A DNA stretch of 64,000 nucleotides, from positions 3,906,001-3,970,000 of the forward strand of contig CP053154.1 in the NCBI GenBank assembly GCA_014607495.2. The letters are read 5' to 3'. Below the pieces are notes generated by a model. It saw only the letters and a program-made list of their open reading frames with translations, had not been told where the DNA came from and made no database searches. Of the stretch, positions 27,301 to 48,300 are shown in pieces; within the stretch, counting starts at the first letter, position 1; every line of letters begins with the position of its first letter. Source of the stretch: Carposina sasakii (lineage: Eukaryota; Arthropoda; Insecta; Lepidoptera; Carposinidae). The position numbers were made by a program, and so were the translations under genes.

Positions 27301-30300
27301 AATCTAATCCGATGATGGTGGCGCTGAAATCTATGGAAAAACTAAACAGATTGGTTTGGCTACGTGAGTTCCGTTTTTCCGCCGCAGCAGTTGGCCAGTC
27401 TTGTGGTATTAAGGGGCGGATTCTCACGTCCGTCGACATAGTGTCGACATATTTGTTTTCATTATCTTGGAATACACTTCCGTAACACTCGTATAGACAG
27501 CTGAATTTGATACGTGCCCCTTTAGTATCCAATTAAGATTTCGGATAACTAAAAATTTCGCAATATTCCACTTTTTCATCAAACTTAAATTTAGTCAAAG
27601 CCGGTATGTAAGATGTAAGTGACCATCACGTCGTTTCACCCAGGTTTCACCTGTCCCGTTGTCTTGCAAGTTAAATTTGATCAACTTCCCAGTTTCCGTT
27701 TAGGCCAAAATATTACATGCATGTATAAATCGGATGATAATGCAATATTATTATGACATAGAGCTGAACTGATAATGGATCTAGAAGGCGGCATTAAAAT
27801 TCCGTAATCAAACGACGCAACCCTATCGAGTTTGGGCTCGTTTGTTTGTTTGATCAGTTGATTTTTAAAGAAAGGTTTTTTAAACGGAAGCTTTTTTACA
27901 TATTTAGTACTGACTTAACTATGCGCAAATAGATAACTGTCGAATGTAGAAATGTATCGAGAGATTTGAGGATCGCAGCCTAGAACCTGTAAACATTATC
28001 AACGAATGAAATTGGTAGATATGTTATTTTATAACAGTATACTATATGTAGGCGGTTTGTACAAATATTTAGATTGGTACTGGATGTACTCGTAATTTAC
28101 TAATGTATTTGTAAGTAGATGAAACTAACAACCTGGATACTTGATGAATCAAACATTTTCATGACAAGTACTCAAGAATACTCGTATATATAATCATAAT
28201 ATAATATAAGTGTTGTTTTAGCCCCAGAATTTTCATCGGTTTTTTTCAATAAAATTTATGTACTGCACTGTACTTGTAGCGTGCTACGACTGCTACGAGC
28301 TACGTTCGCACGACGCAATTTTACACAGATTTTCATAAATTGATGTTTTCTGGGTCATACTGTTTAAGAATTATTATTTGCATTAGTATTTTGTTTAGTT
28401 GGGCATAGGTACTAACTAATTAAAATTAAATAGATAATACTTATGTACTAATACAGTCATAAGAGTCGACTAAGGAAATTAGGGGCGTTCTCTCAGGCAA
28501 TGAGCCAGCAACTTGTCACTGACCATTTACATCTGACCCCGCCATGCTAAACGTGGCTGTAGAATCCCCTTAGATATCCTGCAATAGTGTGTACCATTTT
28601 AGTATAGTATGTAAATACTTTGACCTGCACATTCTACAAAGTTTAGTACCCTTGCGTTATGAGTGTTATGATCCTATCGCAGTAGTTTGTCCATAATTAC
28701 CGCGGGAAGCGAATATGTTGGAATAAAACAAATGGTTTTCTACAGTAATCTACGTGCACTAGATTACTAGACGTAATTCGTTGAGCCGCATGGCGTGATA
28801 TATGATGCATATCATTAATACCTGCAGACGGTTTGATAGATTACAACACGTCTACGCGTCTATAATAACCTGGGTATGTTGAAGCCAAATTATAATACTT
28901 ACCTATACAGTTGGTAGCGTAGAAAACAGAGGTAAACCGCCCCCTGTGGGGTAAGCACGAACCTTTTTACGCGGCGTAACGCTAGCATCTCGATAGCAAA
29001 ATCTATGTGATTTGTCAGTTGGACGATAGCGTTACGGACTATAGAGAGGTTCGTGCTTACCCCTCTGATTACCTAATTTGAAATAGCTAAGCCGAAGCAA
29101 AGCGATAGCGAAAATATTCGCCTTGAAATGTCAAAGTTCCTTTGAAATTCATTTTACGTAATACGAATTGGACAAGCAATCAGCGATTTTTGTACAATTT
29201 TCGCTATCGCTTTGCTTTTGCTAGTTAGGTAATAAGGGGGCCGGTTTGAGTACTTAGATGATAAAAATTACTTACACTAGACAAAAGTTGCAGAGTCCGT
29301 CGCCCCTTGATGATGATAACATTCAAAATAAGGTGGAAAATTACGACGCATTGCTACGAGCTATGAAGAGTTTTTGGAAAGCGTTTAGTCTAGTATATAC
29401 ATATGTTAGTTATTCCATAAATGTATAAAGGTATCTTATATTATTCCATAATATTATACCTGCTTATTTATTATTTGAAAGTGTAATTATGAACCCTGTT
29501 TTACAATGGCTTTGCAAGTTTATAATGTTACACCTGTGTGTATATTTATTGTGTAAGTAGCTACCTACAATAAACTGTTTTTATTTACCTCCCCATAGCC
29601 TCTTTTTAATGTTCTATAGAGGGGTTTGGGGAGTGGATGCAACAAGGTAAACAGTTTTTAAAAGTATCTACCTACTCACTCAGAAATCTCTTTTAATTTA
29701 AACACTGAGTCACACTTTACGTAGGTATCGTGACGCATGTTGGCCAAAGCAATGGTTTCCTAGGATAGCGTCCAAAATAACAGCCATCTTTTGGCGTCTG
29801 ACGTGGCCTCGGTCTAGAATCCTTAGGGAGGCAGCAGCGTAGGTGCGAAAAGTAAAAGAAAGTTCTGTGGTTGCACACAATATTCGAATCAATGTCACAT
29901 CCGGTACACATATTTACATAGGATAGTTACGTGTTTCTTCACGACCGCTTTATAATTGCCCCGCTATCCTACCACAGCTTAAGCAAGAAGATGATGAGGA
30001 ACAGACAACAGATCCTATCCTAGACTTACTAGCATCTGGAGCCAGAGTGGTGCCTTGCTTGATGAACGCTCCGTAAACGAACCAGAAACTTGGGGAGAGG
30101 TTGATGCAGTAGTTGTCGTCTTTTATGATGTTGGCCCGGATCCTTGTGAGCAGAGTGATGCAGGGTCCGTAGCAGAGGACCGCTGCTAACGTCATGTACC
30201 TAGTAGCAGGAAGAGTGGATTAAGACAGAGGGATTTTTCATTTTAGGGATGAGTAGCAGACGTGCGTTTTGCCACAGGTTACCTATATAATTTGCTATTG

Positions 30301-33300
30301 CGCCGACCCTAAATGATTTATGGGAACAGGGTACAAAAAAGAACTAGGAATTTAAAATAGGCCTACTCATGGCCACAATAGACGCACATATTATTTACAA
30401 CTAGAAACGTATTTTTTTTAGCTGGAACTGCGAGGTTATGAAATGGATCCTAGTTAAGCCCCGTTTAACATAGCGGGGCAATTAATTAATCTCATATCAG
30501 CTTTCTGCTTTATCAGACGATGAAATTATAGTGAAGCCATAGCCACAGGAGTACCTACACTATTACTTGGTACTTATTTTCCTTATACATAGCTACTTAC
30601 ATATAATGTGAAATATGAAATGTTACGTAGTTACCAGACATGATTTTTAAATGGTGCAAGCAAGCCAGATCCGGTTGCAGACTCCTTGGGCCTCTTTAAC
30701 ATCATGACCCAGGTTCCCTCATCAAGCACCGTGGAGAATGTGACCTTCTGACGGTACCTCGCAAGTGTTGGGAGGAACGCGGCCGCCATGTCTACCATCT
30801 AAGTTAAGAGTTAATTTGTTAGGTGGTGAAGCTCATCATCCCTAAAAGTATGTACCTATAGTTACTACGTACTTTTCAGTTGCAGTTGATTGATCGGACG
30901 ATCAAGGACGGTCTAGGTTTGGCCTCAGTCACGGGATGTAGTTAGGTAGGCTACTACTCTTATTTAATCTTAGTATTTTAATGTTATGAGATTGTGATTA
31001 AGATATTCCCATGGAGGATTGTCGTAAAGCAGCCAGCCATATAAGAGAACATACCAATGGATGTCTAATGTTTGCCCGAAAATTATATGCACGAATACTC
31101 ATATGCCAGAATTTTACTTGCCCGAATTTTGTATTTGCCATAATATTTATGAATATCACTTGCCCGAATTTCATTTGCCTCAATTTTGTAATTTGCCATA
31201 ATATTTATGTGCCATACTCTTTGTTTGCCAGAAAATTAGATTCCATAATACGTAGATACGTCATACGAAAACGAAAAAAAAAAACATTGAAGCGTATAAA
31301 TAAAATTAATGAGATATTATCTAACAAAGGCAAGAGGAAGAATTTTTGTGTGTTTTAGCATCAAATTTGTATTTGCACTAAGGAAAAGTTAATTTTATTA
31401 AATTTATGACAGTATGGTGCTGCCGCGGCACGCTCGCTTCGCTCGTTCGGCTTGTACGTTGTTTGTCATACTCTAACTCAGGGGTCTCCAAACTACGACC
31501 CGCGGGCCAAATCCGGCCCGCCAGTGCCATCAATCCGGCCCGCGACAGCTTAGGACTTACTACTAGGTGTTACTTTATTTCACAATGGGCAGTTTAGCTT
31601 CCTTCGCCTTTCCCACGCAAACTGACTCGCAATGGCGCCGCTAGCCTTTTATACCTATGTAATTACTGCCATCTAGAAGTGATCGTAAAAACTATCCAGA
31701 ACCAGAACTTTCTCGAACCAATGCGGAAATTCCCAAATATGCCACCTGTTAGTGAGTAGTTGAAATAGATAGTACATACTATTACTGCATAGTATCACTA
31801 CTCGCCACTTACGTGTCACAATATACCTACTGAATATAGTATATTCAGTACACTATCAATAGTAATTGAAATGCAAAAAAGCCTATGTTTGCTTAGGTGG
31901 GCAGAAAAATTAAATTTGTTTTGGCACTTGGAACATACCGAAAAAAATATTATGGCCCTAAGGCTTCTTGGAGACCCCTGCTCTAACCTAGCCCAACATA
32001 AACCTATTCATCGATTAGTTTAAACTGATTTTATGCTTTTTTTTTAGATGCAATTTCAATAGCATATGATAATTATGGCTTACCTACTTAAAATTGTTTT
32101 TATTTCTAATACTTACCTACTTATCACTATAATCGAGCCTTTAGCATTCTGGCACATCGCTGGCCAGCTTGCTCGCTTTGCTCGCTCGGCTTGTGCGTTG
32201 TTTGTCATACTCTAACCTAACCTACCCAAACCAAAGCTACACCTACCTATTCATCGGTTAGTTTAAACCGATTTTATGCTTTTTTCTAGAATCAATTTCT
32301 ATGGCAAATGATTTTATGGCATATGATAATTATGCCTTACAATGATTATGATATGACAAATGATGTTATTGAAATTTACTTTATGGAAAACAAATTTTCT
32401 AGCAAATGACTACTATGGCAAACAATTGAGTATGATATATGAAATTATGAGAAACAATATTATGTCTGTTGACCATTATGGCAGATGAAATTATGGCAAA
32501 TGAAATTCTGGCAAGTGGAGGTATCCCGATTAGATTTTCAGTTTACCTACTAGTAGTTATGAAATATTAGAAGTTGTAAAATATAGCTAGGTATTTGAAC
32601 TTACGCTGTTATTCACAAGTCCGATTAGGCTTTCTTCTGGCCTCGTTCCTCCGACTTCAAAGTTCTTCTCAGGTCTGACGACATCGTACGTGAAGTTAAA
32701 CTTCTTGCTAAGAATATTCACCAGCATGAAGGCCACTCCTTTGCCCACCAATGTCCCATTGTCTCCTTCGTCAATCCAACTTAGTGGAAAATTCTGATAT
32801 AATGAAGGGACACACTTGAATTCCTTTAAATTGTTTTATGTGATACTTAGGGTTACCAGATGAAAAAATCAAAAGACCGGGGAAAAGGCCTGATTTCCAT
32901 GGAAAAGTCCTGAGATTTTATGCAGCTTAAAAATTTTCTCTCCAAAACGTATTATTTTCGTTTTATACACTGCGGATCTAGCTCACGCGTTGCAACTTGC
33001 ACATCGCACTCGAAGCGGCGCGGCGGGGCGGGGTTGTTATTTTAGTTTGTTTCACTTGGATAAATAAGTATTACCAAAAGAAGATTATAGTTAGTTGGTA
33101 GAGATTTGCAAAATCCGGCCGCAATCCTGAGAAAAGTCGAAAAATCCTGAAATCTCAGGATAAATCCTGAGATATGATTACTAGGTAGTCCTAAATTCTT
33201 AATTTGCTATTCCCAAAGGATTTTAGCGTGAGACAGGCAGGCACCTGCGTTTCGAAAGAATGAAACCAGTAGTAAGTTATTGGGCACACCATCCCAATTT

Positions 33301-36300
33301 TGGGTGTGCCCAATAACAGCAATTAATTTTGATTGACTTACATAGCTCCCTCGTCGAAGCGTGCCACCATTGTATCACATCACCCATGTTTACATTTCTG
33401 TAATTTTAAAACAGTAATAGTTATTTTATGTTAAAATTCAGAACAGCTATTAAATTACAACATAACATCTATTACGATATCAGCTGTGTAGAAAGAACTA
33501 GAAATTTGTATTCCAAATTGCTCACGCCTTTCACAGTTAAATAAAAAAAGATCTGTGATCAGATTGACTCGAAGACATTTATTTCAACTATCAAAATTTA
33601 GATCAGATCGACTCGTCATTCTACAGAAAAATATAATCTCATCTTTAAATAATAATCTGCGACCAGATAGGCTCGAAGACACCAGAATTTCAAATTTAGA
33701 TATTCTGATCAGATTGACTCGTGTCGTTCCACAGAAAACAAATATATTTTTATTATTACCATATTTCTGTGACCAGATAGGATCGAAGACACCAGAATTT
33801 CAAACTTAGATATTCTGATCAGATTGACTCGTGTCATTCCACAGAAAACAAATATATTTTTATTATTACCATATTTCTGTGACCAGATAGGATCGAAGAC
33901 ACCAGAATTTCAAACTTAGATATTCTGATCAGATTGACTCGTGTCATTCCACAGAAAACAAATATATTTTTATTATTACCATATTTCTGTGACCAGATAG
34001 GATCGAAGACACCAGAATTTCAAACTTAGATATTCTGATCAGATTGACTCGTGTCGTTCCACAGAAAACAAATATATTTTTTATTATTTCCATATTTCTG
34101 TGATCAGATAGGATCGAAGACACCAGAATTTCAAACTTAGGTATTCTGATCAGATTGACTCGTGTCGTTCCACAGAAAACAAATATATTTTTATTATTTT
34201 AATGATTACCGCAATTCTGTACCAGATTGGCTCGAAGACATCAGATTACCTCATGTCGTTCCACAGAAAACATATATTTTTATTATTTTAATGATTACCA
34301 CAATTCTGTACCAGATTGGTTATACCATTCGCATCGGTTCGGCTCGAACGACGCGTTGCGACGCTAGTCGACGGTAAAACGAGCCGTTTGCCGATTAGCT
34401 GATTGCATCCGTACGGTGTTGAATCTAGCGGAACGTTTCCGATTGCTTCGGAGACGTTTGAACGGCGTTCGACGTTATCTCAATAAGTTATGACTATTAA
34501 TGAAGATTATTATCTCTCACAACATCGTGATTATGTTTAAATCCTATAGGTACTAGACACATCATATATTTATCTATATTGATAGCTGAGATTTAGTTAA
34601 AGGCGGCAGCAAACAGTGAACGTTATTAACACGCGGTACAGCGTTAACGTTTAAGGTCTTCCAACATTTATCGACACGGAATCAGCTAACACCACTCAAA
34701 AAAGCCTTTATGTCTATGAAATAAGGATGTTACTAATAACAATCGCATCGGTTCGGCTCGAACGATGCGTTGCGACGCCAGTCGACGGTGAAACGAGCCG
34801 TTTGCCAATTAGCTGATTGCATCCGTACGGTGCTGAATCTAGCGGAACGTTTCCGATTGCTTCGGAGACGTTTGAACGGCGTTCGACGTTATCTCAATAA
34901 GTTATGACTATTGATGAAGATTATTGTCTCTCACAACATCGTGATTATGTTTAAATCCTATAGGTACTAGACACATCATATATTTATCTATATTGATAGC
35001 TGAGATTTAGTTAAAGGCGGCAGCAAACAGTGAACGTTATTAACACGCGGCACAGCTTTAACGTTTAAGGTCTTCCAACATTTATCGACACGGAATCAGC
35101 TAACACCACTCAAAAAAGCCTTTATGTCTATGAAATAAGGATGTTACTAATAACAATCGCATCGGTTCGGCTCGAACGATGCGTTGCGACGCCAGTCGAC
35201 GGTGAAACGAGCCGTTTGCCAATTAGCTGATTGCATCCGTACGGTGCTGAATCTAGCGGAACGTTTCCGATTGCTTCGGAGACGTTTGAACGGCGTTCGA
35301 CGTTATCTTAATAAGTTATGACTATTGATGAATATTATTGTCTCTCACAACATCGTGATTATGTTTAAATCCTATAGGTACTAGACACATCATATATTTA
35401 TCTATATTGATAGCTGAGATTTAGTTAAAGGCGGCAGCAAACAGTGAACGTTATTAACACGCGGTACAGCGTTAACGTTTAAGGTCTTTCAACATTTAAC
35501 GACGCGGAATCAGCTAACACCACTCAAAAAAGCCTTTATGTCTATGAAATAAGGATGTTACTAATAACAATCGCATCGGTTCGGCTCGAACGATGCGTTG
35601 CGACGCCAGTCGACGGTGAAACGAGCCGTTTGCCAATTAGCTGACTGCATCCGTACGGTGCTGAATCTAGCGGAACGTTTCCGATTGCTTCGGAGACGTT
35701 TGAACGGCGTTCGACGTTATCTCAATAAGTTATGACTATTGATGAAGATTATTGTCTCTCACAACATCGTGATTATGTTTAAATCCTATAGGTACTAGAC
35801 ACATCATATATTTATCTATATTGATAGCTGAGATTTAGTTAAAGGCGGCAGCAAACAGTGAACGTTATTAACACGCGGCACAGCTTTAACGTTTAAGGTC
35901 TTCCAACATTTAACGACGCGGAATCAGCTAACACCACTCAAAAAAGCCTTTATGTCTATGAAATAAGGATGTTACTAATAACAATCGCATCGGTTCGGCT
36001 CGAACGATGCGTTGCGACGCCAGTCGACGGTGAAACGAGCCGTTTGCCAATTAGCTGATTGCATCCGTACGGTGTTGAATCTAGCGGAACGTTTCCGATT
36101 GCTTCGAAGACGTTTGAACGGCGTTCGACGTTATCTCAATAAGTTATGACTATTGATGAAGATTATTGTCTCTCACAACATCGTGATTATGTTTAAATCC
36201 TATAGGTACTAGACACATCATATATTTATCTATATTGATAGCTGAGATTTAGTTAAAGGCGGCAGCAAACAGTGAACGTTATTAACACGCGGTACAGCGT

Positions 36301-39300
36301 TAACGTTTAAAGTCTTCCAACATTTATCGACACGGAATCAGCTAACACCACTCAAAAAGCCTTTATGTCTATGAAATAAGGATGTTACTAATAACAATCG
36401 CATCGGTTCGGCTCGAACGATGCGTTGCGACGCCAGTCGACGGTGAAACGAGCCGTTTGCCGATTAGCTGATTGCATCCGTACGGTGTTGAATCTAGCGG
36501 AACGTTTTCGATTGCTTCGGAGACGTTTGAACGGCGTTCGACGTTATCTCAATAAGTTATGACTATTGATGAAGATTATTGTCTCTCACAACATCGTGAT
36601 TATGTTTAAATCCTATAGGTACTAGACACATCATATATTTATCTATATTGATAGCTGAGATTTAGTTAAAGTCTTCCAACATTTATCGACACGGAATCAG
36701 CTAACACCACTCAAAAAGCCTTTATGTCTATGAAATAAGGATGTTACTAATAACAATCGCATCGGTTCGGCTCGAACGATGCGTTGCGACGCCAGTCGAC
36801 GGTGAAACGAGCCGTTTGCCGATTAGCTGATTGCATCCGTACGGTGCTGAATCTAGCGGAACGTTTCCGATTGCTTCGGAGACGTTTGAACGGCGTTGGA
36901 CGTTATCTCAATAAGTTATGACTATTGATGAACATTATTGTCTCTCACAACATCGTGATTATGTTTAAATCCTATAGGTACTAGACACATCATTTATTTA
37001 TCTATATTGATAGCTGAGATTTAGTTAAAGGCGGCAGCAAACAGTGAACGTTATTAACACGCGGTACAGCGTTAACGTTTAAGGTCTTCCAACATTTATC
37101 GACACGGAATCAGCTAACACCACTCAAAAAAGCCTTTATGTCTATGAAATATGGATGTTACTAATAACAATCGAATCGGTTCGGCTCGAACGATGCGTTG
37201 CGACGCCAGTCGACGGTGAAACGAGCCGTTTGCCGATTAGCTGATTGCATCCGTACGGTGCTGAATCTAGCGAAACGTTTACGATTGCTTCGGAGACGCT
37301 CGAACGGCGTTGGACGGCAGTTGAATAATCAGCTCACATGCCTTCATGCCAAACGGCGTCGGGGACGGCTGAGTACCGATGGTGGTGATGATGGTGCTCG
37401 CGATTGCAGCCAGTTGAGTGTCTATAAAAAAAATAAAAATCTAACGCCATAGCTCCGCTCACACGCATGCCCCACTCTTAGGGATGAAACGATACCATAG
37501 AGTCATCGATACTTTTACTCGATACAGTATCGGTTGTCAAGTATCGATACTTACTCGTATCGAATAGTTTTTGTAAAATTTAGAGTAAAAACCGTAACAA
37601 GTATTATTGGCATTCTTTATTATAATTTTTTTGAAATATTTCCACACACTAGACTTCGGACGCCCCATTTTCAATAACTCACGAAATTAAAAACCAAAGA
37701 AACACCTGAAATACCGGCTAGTAAGATCAGCAGGACGCGGAACAGATCAACATTGAAACTGTCAGTCACTGACATAGCGACAAAATATTATGGCGGCGCA
37801 GTGACCAGGGATTACGACGTGATTACGGCGACTTCAGATGACGGCAACTGACGGTTTTTTTTTTCAGGCAAACAAGCTTGCCAACTCAACTACACCAAAT
37901 TAGGACTAGGATGCGTTCAAAAACTTAAATTTAAATTGTGTTATTTTTTTATTATTGCTGAAATGAAATAACTATATTGACATACTGATATGAGTACTTT
38001 TGACCGATACCTACTCGATACTTCATTTTAAAGTATCGATACTAAAGTACTTGGTATCGAAAAAAGTATCGAGTAAAGGCTGCTTATACACCTGAACGGA
38101 TGACGGACCGCCACAAAACGGAAACCTTGTACACTTATAAATCTTTTCAACGGATGAATGGCATATCAGAGATTACATACATGCGATAATAATATATCGA
38201 ATATTAAGAATGAGTTTTATTTACAACAATTAGTAGGTGGAAAGTACCTATATGAAAAATAAACTTTAACACCTCAGTTATTATGAAATTATTCTTAGTT
38301 CAAAATAAGCTTTATCTTTATAAGTATTTCATGCATTTGAAAACAGTTGATCAATTTTTGATGTTAAAGACGTCGCCAAAAGTTTAACTTATCTAATGTA
38401 GAATACATTAGACCATTTCTTTTGTTCATGAAACGGGTTTAAATCCATTAACGTCTACAAGCACCCATTCTTTTCGCGGTCCGTTGTCCGGTCAGGTCTA
38501 CAAGGGGTCTAATTCATACCGTTCATAACGCTAGGTCAGAGCGTGGCGAACACGTTCTGTTTGACGAAATAGGTATGCTTTAATGCTCTAACGCATGTTT
38601 TACGGTTTTATCATTTTATCTTCTATATATCTACTGTATTTGTAATACTTTCTTAATGCATACTTAGTATGATGAAAAGAAAGCAATAACAATTATAACA
38701 GGATAACTATTTATTTTAATAAGAATGTTATATTGCTCGCGAGTATTAGTCGTATTACTAATAGACTTAGCCCAGGCGTTCATACTTCCATCAGATACAC
38801 ATAATCACATCTCGCTTCCACTAACAATCCTATTTTGGAGTTCGTGCTTACCCTAGGATCAGTAAAACACAGAGAGCAAAAATTTTAAAATTTAAATGAG
38901 AACCAAGTTTTAACGACAAAGAAGTGAAATCTAAATGGATGTCAAGTTCCAGTGATGTATAAGATACTCTATACAAAGTATCGGAAATACACGATGCAAG
39001 ATACTTTCAAAAAAGCATTGCAGATACCAGATACAAATATTTTTTGTAAAAAGGTATCTGAAGTACTAGATACAAAATACCTATCTTTCAAATACTTCTA
39101 AACAATAAAATACTTTTGTAAGAAAACATCATTTAATTGAACTGAAATTTATTTTTTCGAGAAAACTATTTTCGAATAGATCGCGTTGATAACAAGGGTC
39201 AAACAAATGGGAGAAGACAAAATATGAAGATATTAAAATTTATACTTTTAATCTTTATGTTTTAATTGAGATTTGAGTAAAACTAATTCCTCAAACATAT

Positions 39301-42300
39301 TATCATTCACCTTCCTTTGATGATGCCTCATGATCATGCTCCCAAAGGAGAAGAGTCGCTCCACAGGGGCAGTATCTTCAAAATACTAAGATACTAGAAT
39401 AAAGTATCTAAATTAGATTCAAATTAAAAAGTAATTCAATCAAATACAAGATGTAAATACGTATTTTGTCTATTGAGGGATCGTCCGCCACCGGGCCCTT
39501 CCTATACGTATTTTGTATCTTATATCTATATTTCAGATACTTTTATCTAAGATAAATCACATCTCTGCCAAGTTCAATGGTCAGTCCTGAAATTTATTTG
39601 TAACATCATAAAATATCATTTCTTCTTATAACTTTGAATAGTACATTGTAGTCTCAGGTCTGACTTGGCTAATTTCTAGCATCAATCTAAATTTTCAGAC
39701 TAATAAATAATAGGTAAACGATAGGTAACAGGTTTAGAACTTGCGAAGGCTATTATAAGTATAATTCGTATATAAAAAACTAGCTAGTTCTGCTACCTGG
39801 AACTTGGTGTGATCTACCGCAATAAAAGGTAGACTTGATCCTTTCTAAGGCTCTAGACTATTTGTACACCAAATTTTATTCAAATCGCTTCAATAGTTTT
39901 TGTTGTGAAAGACTGACAAACATATACACCTTCGGCGAACTATTCTATCGGCGAACAGTATTTCGACAGACCGTTGCAAGCTCGCTGTGGCCATTTTCAG
40001 ACTATGTTAGAGGACACGGGAGGCGCTTCTGCCTACCTCGCGGAAACCTTATAGACATGAGTTATATTTATCGATTTGCGTAACAAGGCTTCAATGTACA
40101 TACTTCCATTAATTCGTACCAGACGTAAGAACCCGGTTTTTCTAGATACTTTGAAGTATTTTTAACTACGTAGGAAATTAATCTTTATCGTGACTGTGAT
40201 AAGGAACATTATGGAGATTGGGCAGCTAAACACATTAAACACTTAATTCTTTCATGTACCTATGTTGTAGAAAATTTTAATTAAGGTATGTAATCAATAA
40301 TCATAATCATATCATATTGCTATATAAATAAGATTTAAAATCATACACCACAACTCACGTATAGCCATGCTTCATATTTCGAATTTGCGGTACAAAGTTG
40401 TCACTTTATAAGGTTTTTATAGAAAAATGAACCTAGTAATCTTAAACATAAAGAAAATAATCGCACTACAAAATAACTACCTAAATAGTTTCCTAGAATT
40501 CTACGGGCTGCCCCGAGCACTGGCGCCAATGGCTACTAAAGTATTGTATAGAAAAATAGTTCTTATTTCAATAAGCCTGCGTGTTATAATCGCGTTAGCC
40601 AATCTTATTTACTTTGAAATTATTTTCTTTCACATAGCCCGATTATACCTATACACTTTAGATATATAAATGTAAGGCTTAATTTTGGATTCAAACTATT
40701 ACTATGATAGGTGCAACGTTTTTGAGGTTGCACTGTATCGCTAACCTAATACTTTCAAAATCTTCTACATATTTCGGTTCGTTCTTGGTTTACGTACTTC
40801 CAAGTAAAAACCAACTCGCGTAAATATGTACCATCCTTACCCTTAATCGTCTCTTACGATACCCATATGGGCAGACATGAGATACGTCCATACGCATTTA
40901 GTTAAAAAGTTGTTTCATATTGCAAACAGACACTACAGTTTTATTTGTCTGTGTAGATCATACATTGTTATTATTAAAAAATACAAACATCCTCCAAAGT
41001 TGATAAATGATAAAGACGTTATACTAACCGTTTACATTCTTATTTCAATAAGCCTGCGTGTTATAATCGCGTTAGCCAATCTTATTTACTTTGAAATTAT
41101 TTTCTTTCACATAGCCCGATTATACCTATACACTTTAGATATATAAATGTAAGGCTTAATTTTGGATTCAAACTATTACTATGATAGGTGCAACGTTTTT
41201 GAGGTTGCACTGTATCGCTAACCTAATACTTTCAAAATCTTCTACATATTTCGGTTCGTTCTTGGTTTACGTACTTCCAAGTAAAAACCAACTCGCGTAA
41301 ATATGTACCATCCTTACCCTTAATCGTCTCTTACGATACCCATATGGGCAGACATGAGATACGTCCATACGCATTTAGTTAAAAAGTTGTTTCATATTGC
41401 AAACAGACACTACAGTTTTATTTGTCTGTGTAGATCATACATTGTTGTTATTAAAAAATACAAACATCCTCCAAAGTTGATAAATGATAAAGACGTTATG
41501 CTAACCGTTTACATTTTTAAATTCATATACCTACATTAATACTGATCGCATCAACTATGAAATAAGTTACAGCTAATAATCCATTACAAACACTATTAAA
41601 CCCTTTTCAGAAACAATACGCAATCAAAAGAACCTTAGAAAGTTCTAGTTCCGAATTGCGTACAATCAATACATTACCGCCTCTGTGCTCTTTGTGATAT
41701 TGTTCTGGTTGGTTAGAGTGTTTGCTCTAACCGACTTGAATATCTAAATAGCGAAATGATTCTGCCCTTTGTAAGGCAGACGAGGTTAAAGTAATAAGAA
41801 CCATCATCAAATAAATAGGTCTTCACGACATTAGAATCATCTCCCATAAGAAAATAACTGAGGAAACTAATAGCATCACCACCACTTACAAAAATAGACA
41901 ACAAAGGTATACATAATTATGTATTATCACTCTTGCTATCCTCAGGATAACTATTGTTTAGACAATTCAATGACAGTGCACAAACCGGGATGTTAGATGA
42001 ATTGCTATTAAATTAGCGCAGGCTTTCATAGCTCATCATGTATTATTTCGATGTATACGCTATATTAATGTGAAGTTTCATTAAAAAGGGTTGTAAGTGG
42101 CTTCGACTAATACCTTGGGACCCTAAGTCAACCTCACTTGCCCATGGTATACTCTGCTATTTAACGAACGAGGCTCTGACGCTAAATAGCTTATAATACC
42201 TATTTTGCACGAAAACATTTCCTTGGATTCGTTAGCGGTCAAAGTTATCTAGGTATTTTTAAAAAGTAAACTATATCATATAAAAACTAGGAATTTATTT

Positions 42301-45300
42301 TAAAGAAAAAGTAATAAGTAAGTACTTAAAGATAACATATATTTAAAACATAACCTACTTAAAATTAATGTTAGAACTATAAAAAACGGGCTCCGATTCA
42401 TTAAAAAGTTCATGCGTGACGTGCATAAACGATTGCAGCTTACGCCACTGCGGAGAGTCTTTGTTCAGCTGCACCTTCAGCGCGATCAACGCTTTTTTCC
42501 AGCGGTCCGTCGGACGAAGGGAGGCTGCATCAGCGGTATCGTACACCTTGATTTCCACGTAATGTGTTCCTGTGACCGACGATGTACGTCGCACCTTCCC
42601 GTTTGCGACGAGGCTGACCAGCGAGCACGTCAACTCCTCCTTCGAGGATGTAGTCGTCAATGACGTCCCCGCCTCCAACCCGAAGATGTCGTCGTTCCCT
42701 CTAGACGGCGCTGTCTTCTTTTTTGAGTCACTATAAGAAAAACAGAATAGTTTACTAACATGTACGTTACAAATATAAACATTATAACTTAAAAATAAAC
42801 AGGGACATCTGTGTTTTGAAACTCTATACATACATACATATACATAAAAATCACGCCTCATTCCCTGAGGGGTAGGCAGAGATCACAGATCTCCATTTGC
42901 TACGAACCTGACACACCTCTTTCGCTTCATCAGCTTTCATGATATTCTTCATGCACGCTCGTCGGTTAAGGGTACTCTTGACCTGACCTTTCTCTAGAAT
43001 TTCTTTAGAAACCCTATAATATGTAAGTATTTACGCACTAGGTAAGTATAATGAATAACCGTACCGGGTAATCGAACCCGAGGGTTTATCGTGACTTATG
43101 AAACATGAATTAAAATATCTTTGGAATAAACAAAGTTATTTATCACTATGGTAGGCTTGTCTTAGGAATTGAACCGAGACACCGCGTTTAGATAACAAAA
43201 TGTTATTTACCTTGAACTCGGTTCCGTTGAATTCTTGCGCTTGCTTGAAGTCTTTTTCTTAGGCTGAACAGCTGCTACCACCTCATGTTCACGCTCGGAG
43301 TCAGACATTTTTAGGTTCTTGCTAGACTCAGCAGATAAGTAGGTATGTACCACTTTTTCGACGAGTGAACTCGAGGATTCAAAATTAATCCGAAGAATGA
43401 TGAAAAATTTAAAAAGTGTTCCAATTTATTGTAATATTGGTGTTTAAGGTAGAAAAGTCATATGTCATTACAAATAATACAAATCATAATTCATTTTTCA
43501 ATTCATATCAATCGAAACCTTTGCATTACCAATATTGCTGACGCGAGCGCACGTGTTTTAGAGATCCGTAAGTAAATATTAATCGAACCTAAGTGAATTA
43601 AATGGTTTGAAACCTAAATTTTATACAATACTTTACAGCCTCTGTGGTCTAGTAGTAAGAGTTTAACTTTCTACCCGGAGGTTATGGGTTCAATTCCCAC
43701 GGAGTGCTTTTTGTGAAATTGTCTCGAATGCAAAGAGCAAACAACTTGAATATCTAAATAGCAAAATGATTCTACCCTTTGCAAAGCAGACGAGGTTAGT
43801 CATCATCATCATCACAAAGATAAATAGATCTTCACGATATTAGAATCATCTCCCATAAGAAAATGTTATACTTATTTAATATCCATTATGTTTATCAAGT
43901 TATGAGCTCTAGATAACAGAGGAGACTAATAGCATCGCCACCACTAACAAAAATAGATAACAAAGGTATACATAACTATGTATTATCACTCTCGCTATCC
44001 TTAGGATAACTATTGTTTAGATAATGCAATGACAGTGCACAAACAACTAAATGAGAAAGAGCGCCAGCCAAAAAGTAACAATAATCGGGATGTTAGATGA
44101 ATTGCTATTAACTTAGCGCAGGCGTTCATAGTTCATCATGTATTATTCCGATGTATACGCTATATTAATGTAAAGTTTCATTAAAAAGGGTTGTAAGTGG
44201 CTTCGACTCATACTTTGGGACCCTAAGTCAACCTCACTTGCTATTTAACGAACGAGGCTCTGACGCTAAATAGCTTATAATACCTATTTTGCACGAAAAT
44301 ATTTCCTTGGATTCGTTACTGGTCGCTAGATTGTCATATTGGTGCTCGAAAAGCGGTGGTAGGCTCACCACTTACCACGTAGGGATAGGGTAACTGATGA
44401 AAAGTGGGTGTGTAATTTGCATACCTCTGCCCAACCTCCTTAGGAATAATGGGTATGATCTTTATGTACCTATCTACCTATGTATTCACTAAAATCCATT
44501 CAGTAGGTTTTATATGAAATAGTAACAAACATCTATCCATACTTACAAACTTTCGCGTTTATAATAATTATAGTGAACACCCGTGACTCTGTCCGCGTGC
44601 GCTCATTCGTTTTATTATGTTTCTGTATGTGTAGGTATGTGTAGGACCTGTCACTATATTTTCCTGAAAACTGCATTGAAAGAGACTAGCGCGCACAAAC
44701 ATACATACATACATACAGATATGAAGACATACGGACATGCGGTCATACAGATATACAGACAAAATGGAAAAACATTGTTTTAGGTTCTCTTACGTGAATA
44801 AGGACCACCCATTATAATGTTTTTAATATATTTTCCATGTACATAAATCGATCCGTTACAATTTCATTATATGTATCTTAGGTAGATTTGTAGGATGATG
44901 CTCTTGTTTCATACTATAATACGATAAAGTAGTAACCATCAACAAGCAAAGCCATACGATTTAGTTTACTTGCTTAGATATCGTTTTACGATTTCACAAT
45001 ATCCTGCCCGCGTCATAACAACTCACAAAGGCGAGAGTTTCATATTACATTCTGCAAGCTGTTTTAGTTTTATGTACAGTCGAAGATAAAACTAAAACAG
45101 CTTGTAGAATTGCGAAGATAATACAAAGATGATGGTAGGTACTTTCTAAGTATGAATACTGGGTTCTAATACGGATAGTCGTTGGGATGACTTTTTCACC
45201 GACTTCATTTAATACGATATGATAATATGATATGTATGTAAGTAGATAATTTTAAATATATTTTTACGTATACGCGTTAGAAATACAGTTGTAAGTCACA

Positions 45301-48300
45301 AGATTGAACATAAAGTCATATCTGAAAAATAACGGTGTAACAGAATTATTAATTAAACCTACCCCGCTTCCTACGGCATTAGAAGACATTTATTCGTGTA
45401 CGTGACTGTACTTGCTTCAGCTCTGGGGCCAATTCTCGAAAAGTTTTGAGTTAGCATGAAGCCAAAACGGAACCGTTGTAGACACTCAAAACAAAGTTAG
45501 ACATACATTTCAGCACAAGACAGATATTTGTTTAATTCTATCATACTCGTGACCGATGCCTGCCAAAATATACCTTACTACTCAAGCGGTAAGCATATAT
45601 TGCTTGCACCGCATTTCGTTAACGTTCGTTAGTTGTTGCGTTTCGACTTAAAAATTTATAAGAATTGACTCTCCCTGATATGTTACATAAAACTGCAACG
45701 TAGTAGAATATTAGTATTTAGTGATGTGCAATCATAATGTGCTGATTCGCAATAACTCGAGTTAAAATTCGAATAGGTGCTAAACTCGATTTGGAGGTTG
45801 GACTTAGGTATATGACGTAGGTAGGCACTTAAGACCATAACAATGAATTAAAATGATATAGCTAGTGATGAAAGAAAATCATTTTCAAAAATATTTTTAT
45901 ACTCTGATGGTATGTAGATAGATAAATAGGTACTCTATGTTTACACTAAACTGATGTTTAAAGTGATTCTAAGCTAATCTATCTTTGCTCATTAGTTATA
46001 TAATATGTTTCGTTGACATCCTAAAAACCATTCAGAACCTGAGTTCCCGAGTATCCAACTCGATGCGGGACGTTACTCGTCTGTCCCATCACTATTTTTT
46101 TCATTCATTATTCATTCGATGTATTATTTTTTACCACTGACGTGTTAGAAGTCTAGTATACAAGTTGTTGATAAATTTCTGATGGATTTAGTGTTTATGC
46201 GTAAATTTGTGGAATAACCTGAGACAATCTGTCCAGAATTTTATCCCTACTTTCAGTAAGTAATAGTTATTTTATGTTAAAAGCATGTTCAGAACTCAAT
46301 TATAAATGTAACACTATGCGGTACCTATATTTTGTAGAAAGATAAAAGTTAACCTGATAAGAAATTTAATAATTTCAAAATTGTGGTGTTCTTTCATTAT
46401 TAAAATATAATTTCTGTTTTCTGTGGAATGACATGAATTTTAATTGTTGAAATTCTGATATCTTCGAGCCAATCTCGTCACAGAATTGTTATTTTCTGTG
46501 GAACGACACGAGACAATCTGGTGTCTTCGAGCCAATCTGGTCGCAGAAATGTGGTAATAATTTATATTTAAAAATAATTAAATGTTTTTGTGGAACGACA
46601 CAAGTCAATCTGGTGTCTTCGAGCCAATCTGGTCGCAGAAATATAGTAAGCATTGAAATTTTAAAATAATTTATGTTTTCTGTGGAACGATACAAGTAAT
46701 CTGGTATCTTCGAGCCAATCTGGTCGCAGAAATGTGGTAATCATTAAAATAATAAAATATATATGTTTTCTGTGGAACGACATGAGGTAATCTGATGTCT
46801 TCGAGCCAATCTGGTCGCAGAAATGTGGTAATAATTTATATTTAAAAATAATTAATGTTTTTGTGGAACGACACAAGTCAATCTGGTGTCTTCGAGCCAA
46901 TCTGGTCGCAAAAATATAGTAAGCATTGAAATTTTAAAATAATTTATGTTTTCTGTGGAACGATACAAGTAATCTGGTGTCTTCGAGCCAATCTGGTCGC
47001 AGAAATGTGGTAATCATTAAAATAATAAAAATATATTTGTTTTCTGTGGAACGACACGAGTCAATCTGATCAGAATATCTAAGTTTGAAATTCTGGTGTC
47101 TTCGATCCTATCTGGTCACAGAAATATGGTAATAATAAAAATATATTTGTTTTCTGTGGAACGACACGAGTCAATCTGATCAGAATATCTAAGTTTGAAA
47201 TTCTGGTGTCTTCGAGCCTATCTGGTCGCAGATTATTATTTAAAGATGAGATTATATTTTTCTGTAGAATGACGAGTCGATCTGATCTAAATTTTGATAG
47301 TTGAAATAAATGTCTTCGAGTCAATCTGATCACAGATCTTTTTTTATTTAACTGTGAAAGGCGTGAGCAATTTGGAATACAAATTTCTAGTTCTTTCTAC
47401 ACAGCTGATATCGTAATAGATGTTATGTTGTAATTTAATAGCTGTTCTGAATTTTAACATAAAATAACTATTACTGTTTTAAAATTACAGAAATGTAAAC
47501 ATGGGTGATGTGATACAATGGTGGCACGCTTCGACGAGGGAGCTATGTAAGTCAATCAAAATTAATTGCTGTTATTGGGCACACCCAAAATTGGGGATGG
47601 TGTGCCCAATAACTTACTACTGAAACCACATTACGTCGATCTCATAAATAATAATGAAATAAGGGCTGGTGAATGATAATCTATCTATAGCTGTTTCCAG
47701 GGTCGAGAGGTATAAAACAATGTCATTTGCAATGGTGACTATTCTGCGTTGGAGCTTTAGGACTTTTACTTACACTGTATGAGGCGATTTTGAGACGCTT
47801 CCCATTGACTTCCCGAGCCAACTCCCGTAGTACATTTTGGTGATGGGATAGCTGTTGTTCTGTAACAATAAGAAACAATTTCTATATACCCTGTCCGTCT
47901 CATGATCTCATCCGATATCGCGGCTGGATAGAGGTAACAAACACAGAAAATCCTAGGGGGAATAAAGTTGTAGGTACTTAGGTAACCTACTTCCAAAATA
48001 ATTATGTAATCGTCTATACCTATCTAGGTATACATGCTTATCATAAAAATGTAACGGATCGCTGTCTGTAGGTACATGGAAGATATATGAGAAAAAATAT
48101 TATAGGAGACCTTTATCTACGCAATAGTAGGTACCCAGAAGAATGATTTTTGGAATTTTTGTCTGTTTGTCGGTTTGTCTGTGCGTTTGTGCAAACTAAT
48201 CTCAGAAACGGCTGAACCGATTTCGATGCAGTTTTCAGGAATAACACTTAACATATAGGCTACTTTTTATCCCGGGAAAATGTTGTTATCCCGGATAATT

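What the first reader, a model, noticed from the sequence alone, without database searches (positions are those of the whole stretch)
33269..47620. 14.35-kb foldback-like unit with perfect 8-bp target duplication fills a chemoreceptor intron
Seen: identical TGAAACCA on both sides, near-identical inverted ends of about 560 bp that grade into 110-bp tandem repeats, and receptor exons intact on both sides. Subtracting it leaves a ~620-bp intron. Known: Foldback and Galileo elements have long inverted ends made of tandem repeats; 8-bp duplications occur in hAT, P and KDZ/Zisupton transposons. The GTAGTAAG terminus fits none I know. Inference: a recent insertion of a large, possibly undescribed element class.
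Basis: partly seen in the sequence, partly recalled or inferred. Interest (0 to 1): 0.9.

Follow-up and report, generated by a model that had tools for sequence, protein, structure and literature searches.

The report
Gene-poor satellite of a moth provirus
The 14-kb insert in this receptor gene is a stripped-down copy of a virus-like transposon (a Maverick, or adintovirus) that lacks the replication, integration and capsid genes of its full-length relatives, keeps one small gene, and has apparently been copied around the genome and recombined with those relatives.

Summary
The insert is real but not a new element class. With the termini shared by the copies, its ends are AGTAGTAAG...CTTACTACT and the target duplication is 6 bp (GAAACC), not 8; 18 of 18 paired copies agree. 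These are Maverick/Polinton hallmarks. Six pairs (P-type, 17.1-17.9 kb) carry PolB, integrase, PLA2, hexon and weaker ATPase- and protease-like matches; the hexon is 80% identical to that of Spodoptera moth adintovirus 1. The window copy belongs to a non-autonomous set (W-type): 12 pairs of 12.1-15.8 kb plus two single-ended copies. In five read in full, none of ten P-type proteins matches; one small spliced gene remains, its exon 2 without stops in 14 of 14. Its predicted fold resembles densovirus NS2 (fold only). The window copy and two others at different sites share one junction: W-type sequence to 43837, then 3783 bp that in the window copy equal a P-type element. So W-type elements were most likely mobilised in trans and recombined with full elements. 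Packaging, and a role of the NS2-like gene, are inferred; a size-compensation test was negative.

The parts
33262..33267 (.). left target-site duplication GAAACC
47622..47627 (.). right target-site duplication GAAACC
33268..33863 (+). left terminal inverted repeat, starts AGTAGTAAG; holds a 15-bp hairpin stem at 33276-33317
   Evidence: hairpin z -6.3
47025..47621 (-). right terminal inverted repeat, ends CTTACTACT; three differences from the left one
33656..34319 (.). left 110/89-bp tandem array; 33268-34319 matches, in pieces of 80-98% identity, the inverted right end of a P-type element
46492..47232 (.). right 91/110-bp tandem array
34322..37030 (.). 414-bp tandem array (one unit pair 359 bp apart), non-coding filler
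37031..42238 (.). W-type interior without recognisable genes; its part 38200-39100 was tested and occurs at 14 places at 94-100% over the whole probe, elsewhere only in short matches; includes a 477-bp tandem duplication 40560-41519
   Evidence: (40 of 113 candidates scored)
42355..42730 (-). exon 2 of the retained NS2-like gene, stop codon included
43211..43308 (-). exon 1 of the retained NS2-like gene (ATG at 43308-43306; splice donor GTAAAT at 43210); splicing predicted from sequence
43839..47621 (.). right arm identical over 3783 bp to that of a P-type element; junction at 43838
32587..32793 (-). receptor exon downstream of the insertion; lower bound is the end of the open frame, true exon end not fixed
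47774..47881 (-). receptor exon upstream of the insertion; upper bound is that of the open frame
29950..30216 (-). further receptor exon, Lig_chan match
   Evidence: E 5.9e-6, below Pfam's own cut-off

Best explanation
The insert is a non-autonomous ('gutted') Maverick/adintovirus element. It keeps the terminal sequences of full-length relatives, one NS2-like gene and several kb of repetitive filler. SHOWN: it shares termini and 6-bp duplications with full-length elements in the same genome; no match to ten of their proteins was found in five W-type copies; W-type copies sit at many sites with target duplications; and a W x P recombinant arrangement is present at three different sites. INFERRED: full-length elements supply PolB, which copies the linear DNA from protein-primed ends (the doubled AGT allowing the jump-back step), and the integrase, which inserts it. 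The two DNAs meet during replication and exchange arms. The NS2-like protein probably acts in the nucleus on expression or replication. Packaging of W-type DNA into P-type capsids is possible but not shown.
For: Termini and duplications 18 of 18. P-type genes: rve integrase 5.1e-10, PLA2 2e-11, DJR hexon 1e-110, all over Pfam's cut-offs; ATPase, protease and chromodomain matches below them; PolB frames of 1174-1176 aa in 6 of 6; 58 of 60 gene-copy pairs uninterrupted for ten proteins, read from the first Met of each frame, in six copies. Hexon 80% to Spodoptera moth adintovirus 1. The ten proteins give no match in five W-type copies at E 1e-4, while the NS2-like gene does; its exon 2 has no stop in 14 of 14 W-type copies. 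Junction: against one P-type copy the window has 0 differences in 3783 bp right of 43838 and 36 in 1050 compared bp left of it; two further W-type copies with other duplications carry the same junction.
Against: No activity was observed; everything is inferred from copies in one assembly. Seven of the 12 paired W-type copies were read only at their ends (right arms too in two) and by probe searches. A Pfam scan of the PolB frame listed Endonuclease_7 just below its cut-off and not DNA_pol_B_2, although the DNA_pol_B_2 model matches the same place at 93 bits; I cannot explain the difference. Between W and P the NS2-like exon 2 shows dN 0.021-0.025 and dS 0.023-0.060, so constraint is weak. Coding sites change less than adjacent non-coding ones (10/478 against 23/353, p 0.002), but this sums both branches, and within W both kinds of site vary little. 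No sign of length compensation (permutation p 0.78; 0.58 without the longest copy).
Confidence: 0.87

Rival explanations
1. It is a Foldback, Galileo, hAT, P or KDZ element, or a new class with 8-bp duplications.
For: Long inverted ends grading into tandem repeats; an apparent 8-bp duplication in this one copy.
Against: 0 of 18 paired copies have a duplication longer than 6 bp once the shared termini are used; the termini are those of full Mavericks; in 6 of 6 P-type copies the inverted repeat is about 200 bp, so I infer that the foldback arms arose within the W-type line.
Confidence: 0.02
2. The W-type elements are dead relics, spread by segmental duplication or already immobile.
For: None of ten P-type proteins matches in the five copies read in full.
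Against: Twelve of 12 paired W-type copies have precise 6-bp duplications, ten different 6-mers, the two shared ones in different flanks; three copies, the window's included, are identical over the 901-bp interior probe; the W x P junction is found at three sites.
Confidence: 0.06
3. The helper is not the resident P-type copies but an exogenous adintovirus that infects the germ line; resident P-type copies are its other footprints.
For: P-type copies are mostly 98.5-100% identical to one another by aligned segment, which fits recent repeated infection as well as transposition.
Against: No free virus was seen; two scans of viral contigs gave no relative, but these were strict patterns in a collection not aimed at insects.
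Confidence: 0.3
4. The 12-16 kb length is kept because shorter DNA cannot be packaged stably, so the repeats act as stuffer.
For: None of 18 paired copies is shorter than 12,065 bp; vertebrate Maverick lengths vary by about 10%, read by the authors as a constrained size (PMC8097293, passage).
Against: W-type copies look like descendants of one founder, so this is one observation, not twelve; segment lengths show no compensation.
Confidence: 0.3

Closest known systems
Polinton/Maverick elements (Polintoviricetes)
   Same: 6-bp duplications, (AGT)2//(ACT)2 ends, inverted repeats; full-length relatives with PolB, integrase and hexon
   Different: none of those genes was found in the window copy; longer repeat-filled ends; filled with satellite-like repeats
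Moth adintoviruses: Spodoptera moth adintovirus 1, Sf Maverick 1 and 2 (PMC5803895)
   Same: P-type hexon is 80% identical; similar gene set and, like Sf Maverick 2, PolB on the opposite strand (passages)
   Different: the small spliced NS2-like gene is not among the nine ORFs named in the passages I saw, and no non-autonomous partner is mentioned in them
NS2 of densoviruses
   Same: predicted fold of the retained protein: 19 BFVD matches below 1e-3, 11 named NS2, 18 from densoviruses or other parvovirus-like sources, 1 without a name
   Different: 11-24% identity, TM-scores by query length 0.42-0.65, rmsd 6-24 A, fold comparison only; here the gene sits beside PolB in a dsDNA element, whereas in a bidnavirus NS2 mostly lies within NS1 (PMC11768917, passages)
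Helper-dependent satellites (phage-inducible islands, virophages; gutless adenovirus vectors, recalled)
   Same: cis-acting ends kept, helper functions supplied in trans
   Different: packaging by the helper has not been shown here
Foldback and Galileo elements
   Same: long inverted ends made of tandem repeats
   Different: different duplication length and Maverick termini

Membership tests
Polinton/Maverick | 6-bp target-site duplication | tested here: met
   18 of 18 paired copies, window included
Polinton/Maverick | terminal repeat motif, (AGT)2//(ACT)2 | tested here: met
   18 of 18; motif from PMC8097293 (passage)
Polinton/Maverick | protein-primed PolB, rve integrase, packaging ATPase, protease in the element | tested here: not met
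   no match in the window copy and four other fully read W-type copies; in six P-type copies with the same termini PolB and integrase are clear, ATPase and protease weak by Pfam. Filed as a non-autonomous derivative only.
Adintoviridae (P-type relatives) | adintovirus hexon, PolB, rve integrase with chromodomain | tested here: met
   hexon 80% to Spodoptera moth adintovirus 1; rve 5.1e-10, Chromo 2e-4 but below Pfam's own cut-off; PolB by the DNA_pol_B_2 model, not listed by the Pfam scan of one frame
hAT, P or KDZ transposon | 8-bp target-site duplication | tested here: not met
   0 of 18 paired copies
Foldback/Galileo | their duplication lengths (9 and 7 bp, recalled) | tested here: not met
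   6 bp in 18 of 18
Foldback/Galileo | MULE-type or P-type transposase | not tested
   not searched for
Densovirus NS2 protein family | NS2 fold | tested here: met
   AlphaFold2 model, pLDDT 79, 70 of 126 residues at 90 or more; BFVD best 2.3e-7; no PDB match better than E 0.99
Densovirus NS2 protein family | sequence-level homology | tested here: inconclusive
   no shared Pfam family among 31 members, best E 0.02; no NS2 sequences were at hand for a profile comparison
Virion-packaged satellite | DNA found in helper particles | not testable with these tools
   sequence only

The most novel reading that the evidence does not exclude
Mavericks of moths have true satellites: gene-stripped elements that keep an NS2-like regulator and stuffer repeats, are replicated, integrated and perhaps packaged by the full virus, and repeatedly swap arms with it. 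The NS2 gene of densoviruses and bidnaviruses, whose origin was left open for bidnaviruses, belongs to the same family as this Maverick gene beside PolB.
Probability: 0.35. Interest if true: 0.85.

Novelty: new variant of a known kind. Interest (0 to 1): 0.62.

Why it matters
Defective Maverick copies are well known as decayed fossils (PMC8097293, passages). A large, recently spread, non-autonomous set that recombines with its full-length relatives would show trans-mobilisation of a virus-like transposon and give a handle on whether such elements still make particles. The retained gene is also a candidate answer to a stated open point: the origin of bidnavirus NS2 was marked unclear, and a small gene next to the inverted repeat was suspected, without sequence similarity, to come from a polintovirus (PMC4061559, figure legends; whether that small gene is NS2 I did not check). 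A search for six exact phrases on non-autonomous, defective or derived Mavericks/Polintons found no paper in the held library, and none holds both 'adintovirus' and 'NS2'; absence there is not absence from print.

Tried and rejected
(1) hAT/P/KDZ/Foldback/Galileo: rejected on duplication length. (2) No PolB in the family: a first impression from ORF lists of two halves; wrong, PolB spans the cut between the halves. (3) 'Several independent PolB-less families keep NS2': held, dropped when one search showed PolB beside NS2 in two of those families and one search showed that the Pfam-based search had undercounted PolB. (4) Host-DNA capture as source of the W-type interior: no full-length counterpart outside W-type elements for one 901-bp probe (40 of 113 candidates scored); short remnants of Maverick non-coding strips instead. 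(5) Length compensation: negative. (6) Relatives in viral contigs: none. (7) Structure from five sequences: useless (pLDDT 46); with 31 usable. (8) Chromosome-end bias: five of 22 elements within 200 kb of a contig end (binomial p 6e-4, threshold chosen after looking); KS over all distances not significant (p 0.14).
Full report
Observation. The window holds one insertion of 14,354 bp at 33268-47621, with inverted ends of about 596 bp grading into 110- and 91-bp tandem arrays. It lies in an intron of a receptor-like gene; the intron is 14,980 bp long and would be 620 bp without the element and one duplication. That the gene is an ionotropic receptor rests on a Lig_chan match of 5.9e-6 that stays below Pfam's own cut-off and a weak iGluR match, E 0.66.

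The duplication is 6 bp. The terminal 152 bp gave 40 matches in the genome of the window (399 Mb, 31 contigs) at 97-100% identity (40 of 43 candidates scored). Thirty-six form 18 pairs 12.1-17.9 kb apart; four stand alone. With that border 18 of 18 pairs carry a perfect 6-bp duplication and none a longer one; mismatched pairings agree in 4 of 306 cases, due to two 6-mers that each occur at two sites with different flanks. The 8-bp reading is GAAACC plus one chance letter on each side. AGTAGT//ACTACT ends and 6-bp duplications are those reported for vertebrate Mavericks (PMC8097293, passages).

Two kinds of copy. Six pairs (P-type, 17.1-17.9 kb) carry a moth Maverick/adintovirus gene set. In the copy scanned, integrase (rve 5.1e-10), PLA2 (2e-11) and DJR hexon (1e-110) pass Pfam's cut-offs; ATPase (4.5e-4), protease (1.4e-3) and chromodomain (2e-4) do not, and five of the ten frames scanned, the NS2-like one included, have no meaningful match. 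PolB frames are 1174-1176 aa in 6 of 6; the DNA_pol_B_2 model matches there at 93-95 bits, yet a Pfam scan of one frame listed only Endonuclease_7, just below cut-off, and a trivial match. Of ten proteins in six copies, 58 of 60 matches are uninterrupted. The hexon is 80% identical to that of Spodoptera moth adintovirus 1. A similar gene set, with PolB on the opposite strand, an endonuclease VII match in PolB and likewise weak ATPase and protease matches, is described for Sf Maverick 2 (PMC5803895, passages). The other 12 pairs (W-type, 12.1-15.8 kb) include the window copy. Five were read in full (the window copy and four others); the four match the window copy over most of their length, with unmatched stretches of up to about 1.2 kb and internal rearrangements. 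Seven were read at their ends, which are of the long-repeat kind on both sides, and two of these also along their right arms. A probe, window 38200-39100, occurs at 14 places at 94-100% over its full length, the 12 pairs plus two single-ended copies; other matches are short (40 of 113 candidates scored). None of the ten P-type proteins matches the five W-type copies at E 1e-4; in the window interior a relaxed search gives only matches with E of 0.25 or worse. The remaining two single ends, on C8 and C30, lie near NS2-like (95% and 87%) and hexon pieces and look like incomplete P-type relatives.

What W-type copies keep. One gene survives: two predicted exons on the minus strand, 43308-43211 and 42730-42355, 158 codons with the stop. 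In P-type copies it lies just upstream of PolB in the same orientation. Exon 2 has no stop in 14 of 14 W-type copies: 11 at 100% identity to the window protein, 2 at 99%, and 1 at 98% over residues 1-119 of 126. P-type copies have an extra intron-like stretch with GT...AG ends at the start codon that the window copy lacks precisely (one P-type copy against the window). Several moth homologues seem to run into an intron end at the same place, so I infer that W lost it. A profile search found 30 proteins at E 1 or better; those whose name gives an organism are from moths and butterflies. The AlphaFold2 model (31 sequences, pLDDT 79) has no PDB relative (best E 0.99). In the viral library it has 19 matches below 1e-3, best 2.3e-7: 11 named NS2, 18 from densoviruses or other parvovirus-like sources, one unnamed; identity is 11-24%, TM-score by query length 0.42-0.65 and rmsd 6-24 A. 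The function of bidnavirus NS2 is described as unknown, with a nuclear localisation signal and an effect on viral promoter activity (PMC11768917, passages), and its origin as unclear (PMC4061559, legends).

Evidence of recent trans-mobilisation. The window copy equals a W-type copy base for base over 2567 bp up to 43837, and a P-type copy base for base over 3783 bp from 43839 to the terminus. Left of the junction that P-type copy differs at 36 of 1050 compared positions, right of it at 0 of 3783. Two other W-type copies, with duplications GATGCA and AAGGTC, show 0 differences from the window left of the junction and 6 and 0 differences right of it, while four further W-type copies differ on the right at 76-122 positions, many in the terminal arrays (bases inserted relative to the window are not counted). 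Two other P-type copies differ from the window's right arm at 7 of 3783 positions each; I compared three of six P-type copies this way. In one search a fourth, C10b, is about 1% off and close to one W-type copy in places, so right arms are mixed between the two kinds more than once. I take the window's right arm to be of P-type origin: a W-type element recombined with a P-type element, and the product is found at three sites. As no integrase or polymerase was recognised in it, those were most likely supplied in trans.

Mechanism. From the literature: in adenoviruses and tectiviruses, end repeats allow jump-back during protein-primed replication, and the same is expected in Mavericks (PMC8097293, passage). 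Inferred here: P-type copies, or an exogenous relative, replicate and integrate W-type DNA because it carries the same ends; replication brings both into contact, hence the exchange. The NS2-like gene may be kept because it favours its own element. Selection on it is only weakly supported: coding sites differ less between W and P than flanking ones (10/478 against 23/353, p 0.002; six such comparisons gave p 0.001-0.012), dN is 0.021-0.025 against dS 0.023-0.060, and within W both kinds of site vary little. Packaging is possible, but the length test was negative, and the W-type copies look like descendants of one founder.

Limits. One assembly, species not named; no reads, no expression, no other individuals. 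Counts from the genome search are lower bounds. The NS2 assignment rests on fold comparison alone.

Noticed in passing
genome G000: The genome holds many recent Mavericks: 105 hexon match rows (some loci give several; 103 of 154 candidates scored) and 39 PolB rows (39 of 224 candidates scored), in several families of near-identical, mostly open copies.
   Followed up: partly
L060 (C22:396000-404000): Possibly a second PolB-less kind: part of PLA2, protease, the 246-aa frame, hexon and the 174-aa frame match P-type proteins at 92-99%, with no PolB or NS2-like match in the 8 kb read. By hand count, 29 full-length hexon rows at 96-98% besides the P-type ones; 6 have a listed PolB within 10 kb.
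   Followed up: partly
window 43306/43307; L010:4334-4531: A P-type copy has an intron-like stretch splitting the start codon of the NS2-like gene; the window copy lacks it exactly, with a 2-bp GT repeat at its borders.
   Followed up: partly
C17, C11, C18 and C25 (two), 34-177 kb from contig ends: Five of 22 elements, all W-type, lie within 200 kb of a contig end (p 6e-4, threshold chosen after looking; KS test not significant).
   Followed up: partly
window 33276-33317: The terminal 60 bases fold into a hairpin with a 15-bp stem (z -6.3) next to the end motif.
   Followed up: no
C23:23805-27257 (L035): A P-like PolB 94% identical with eight stop codons, a decayed relative.
   Followed up: no
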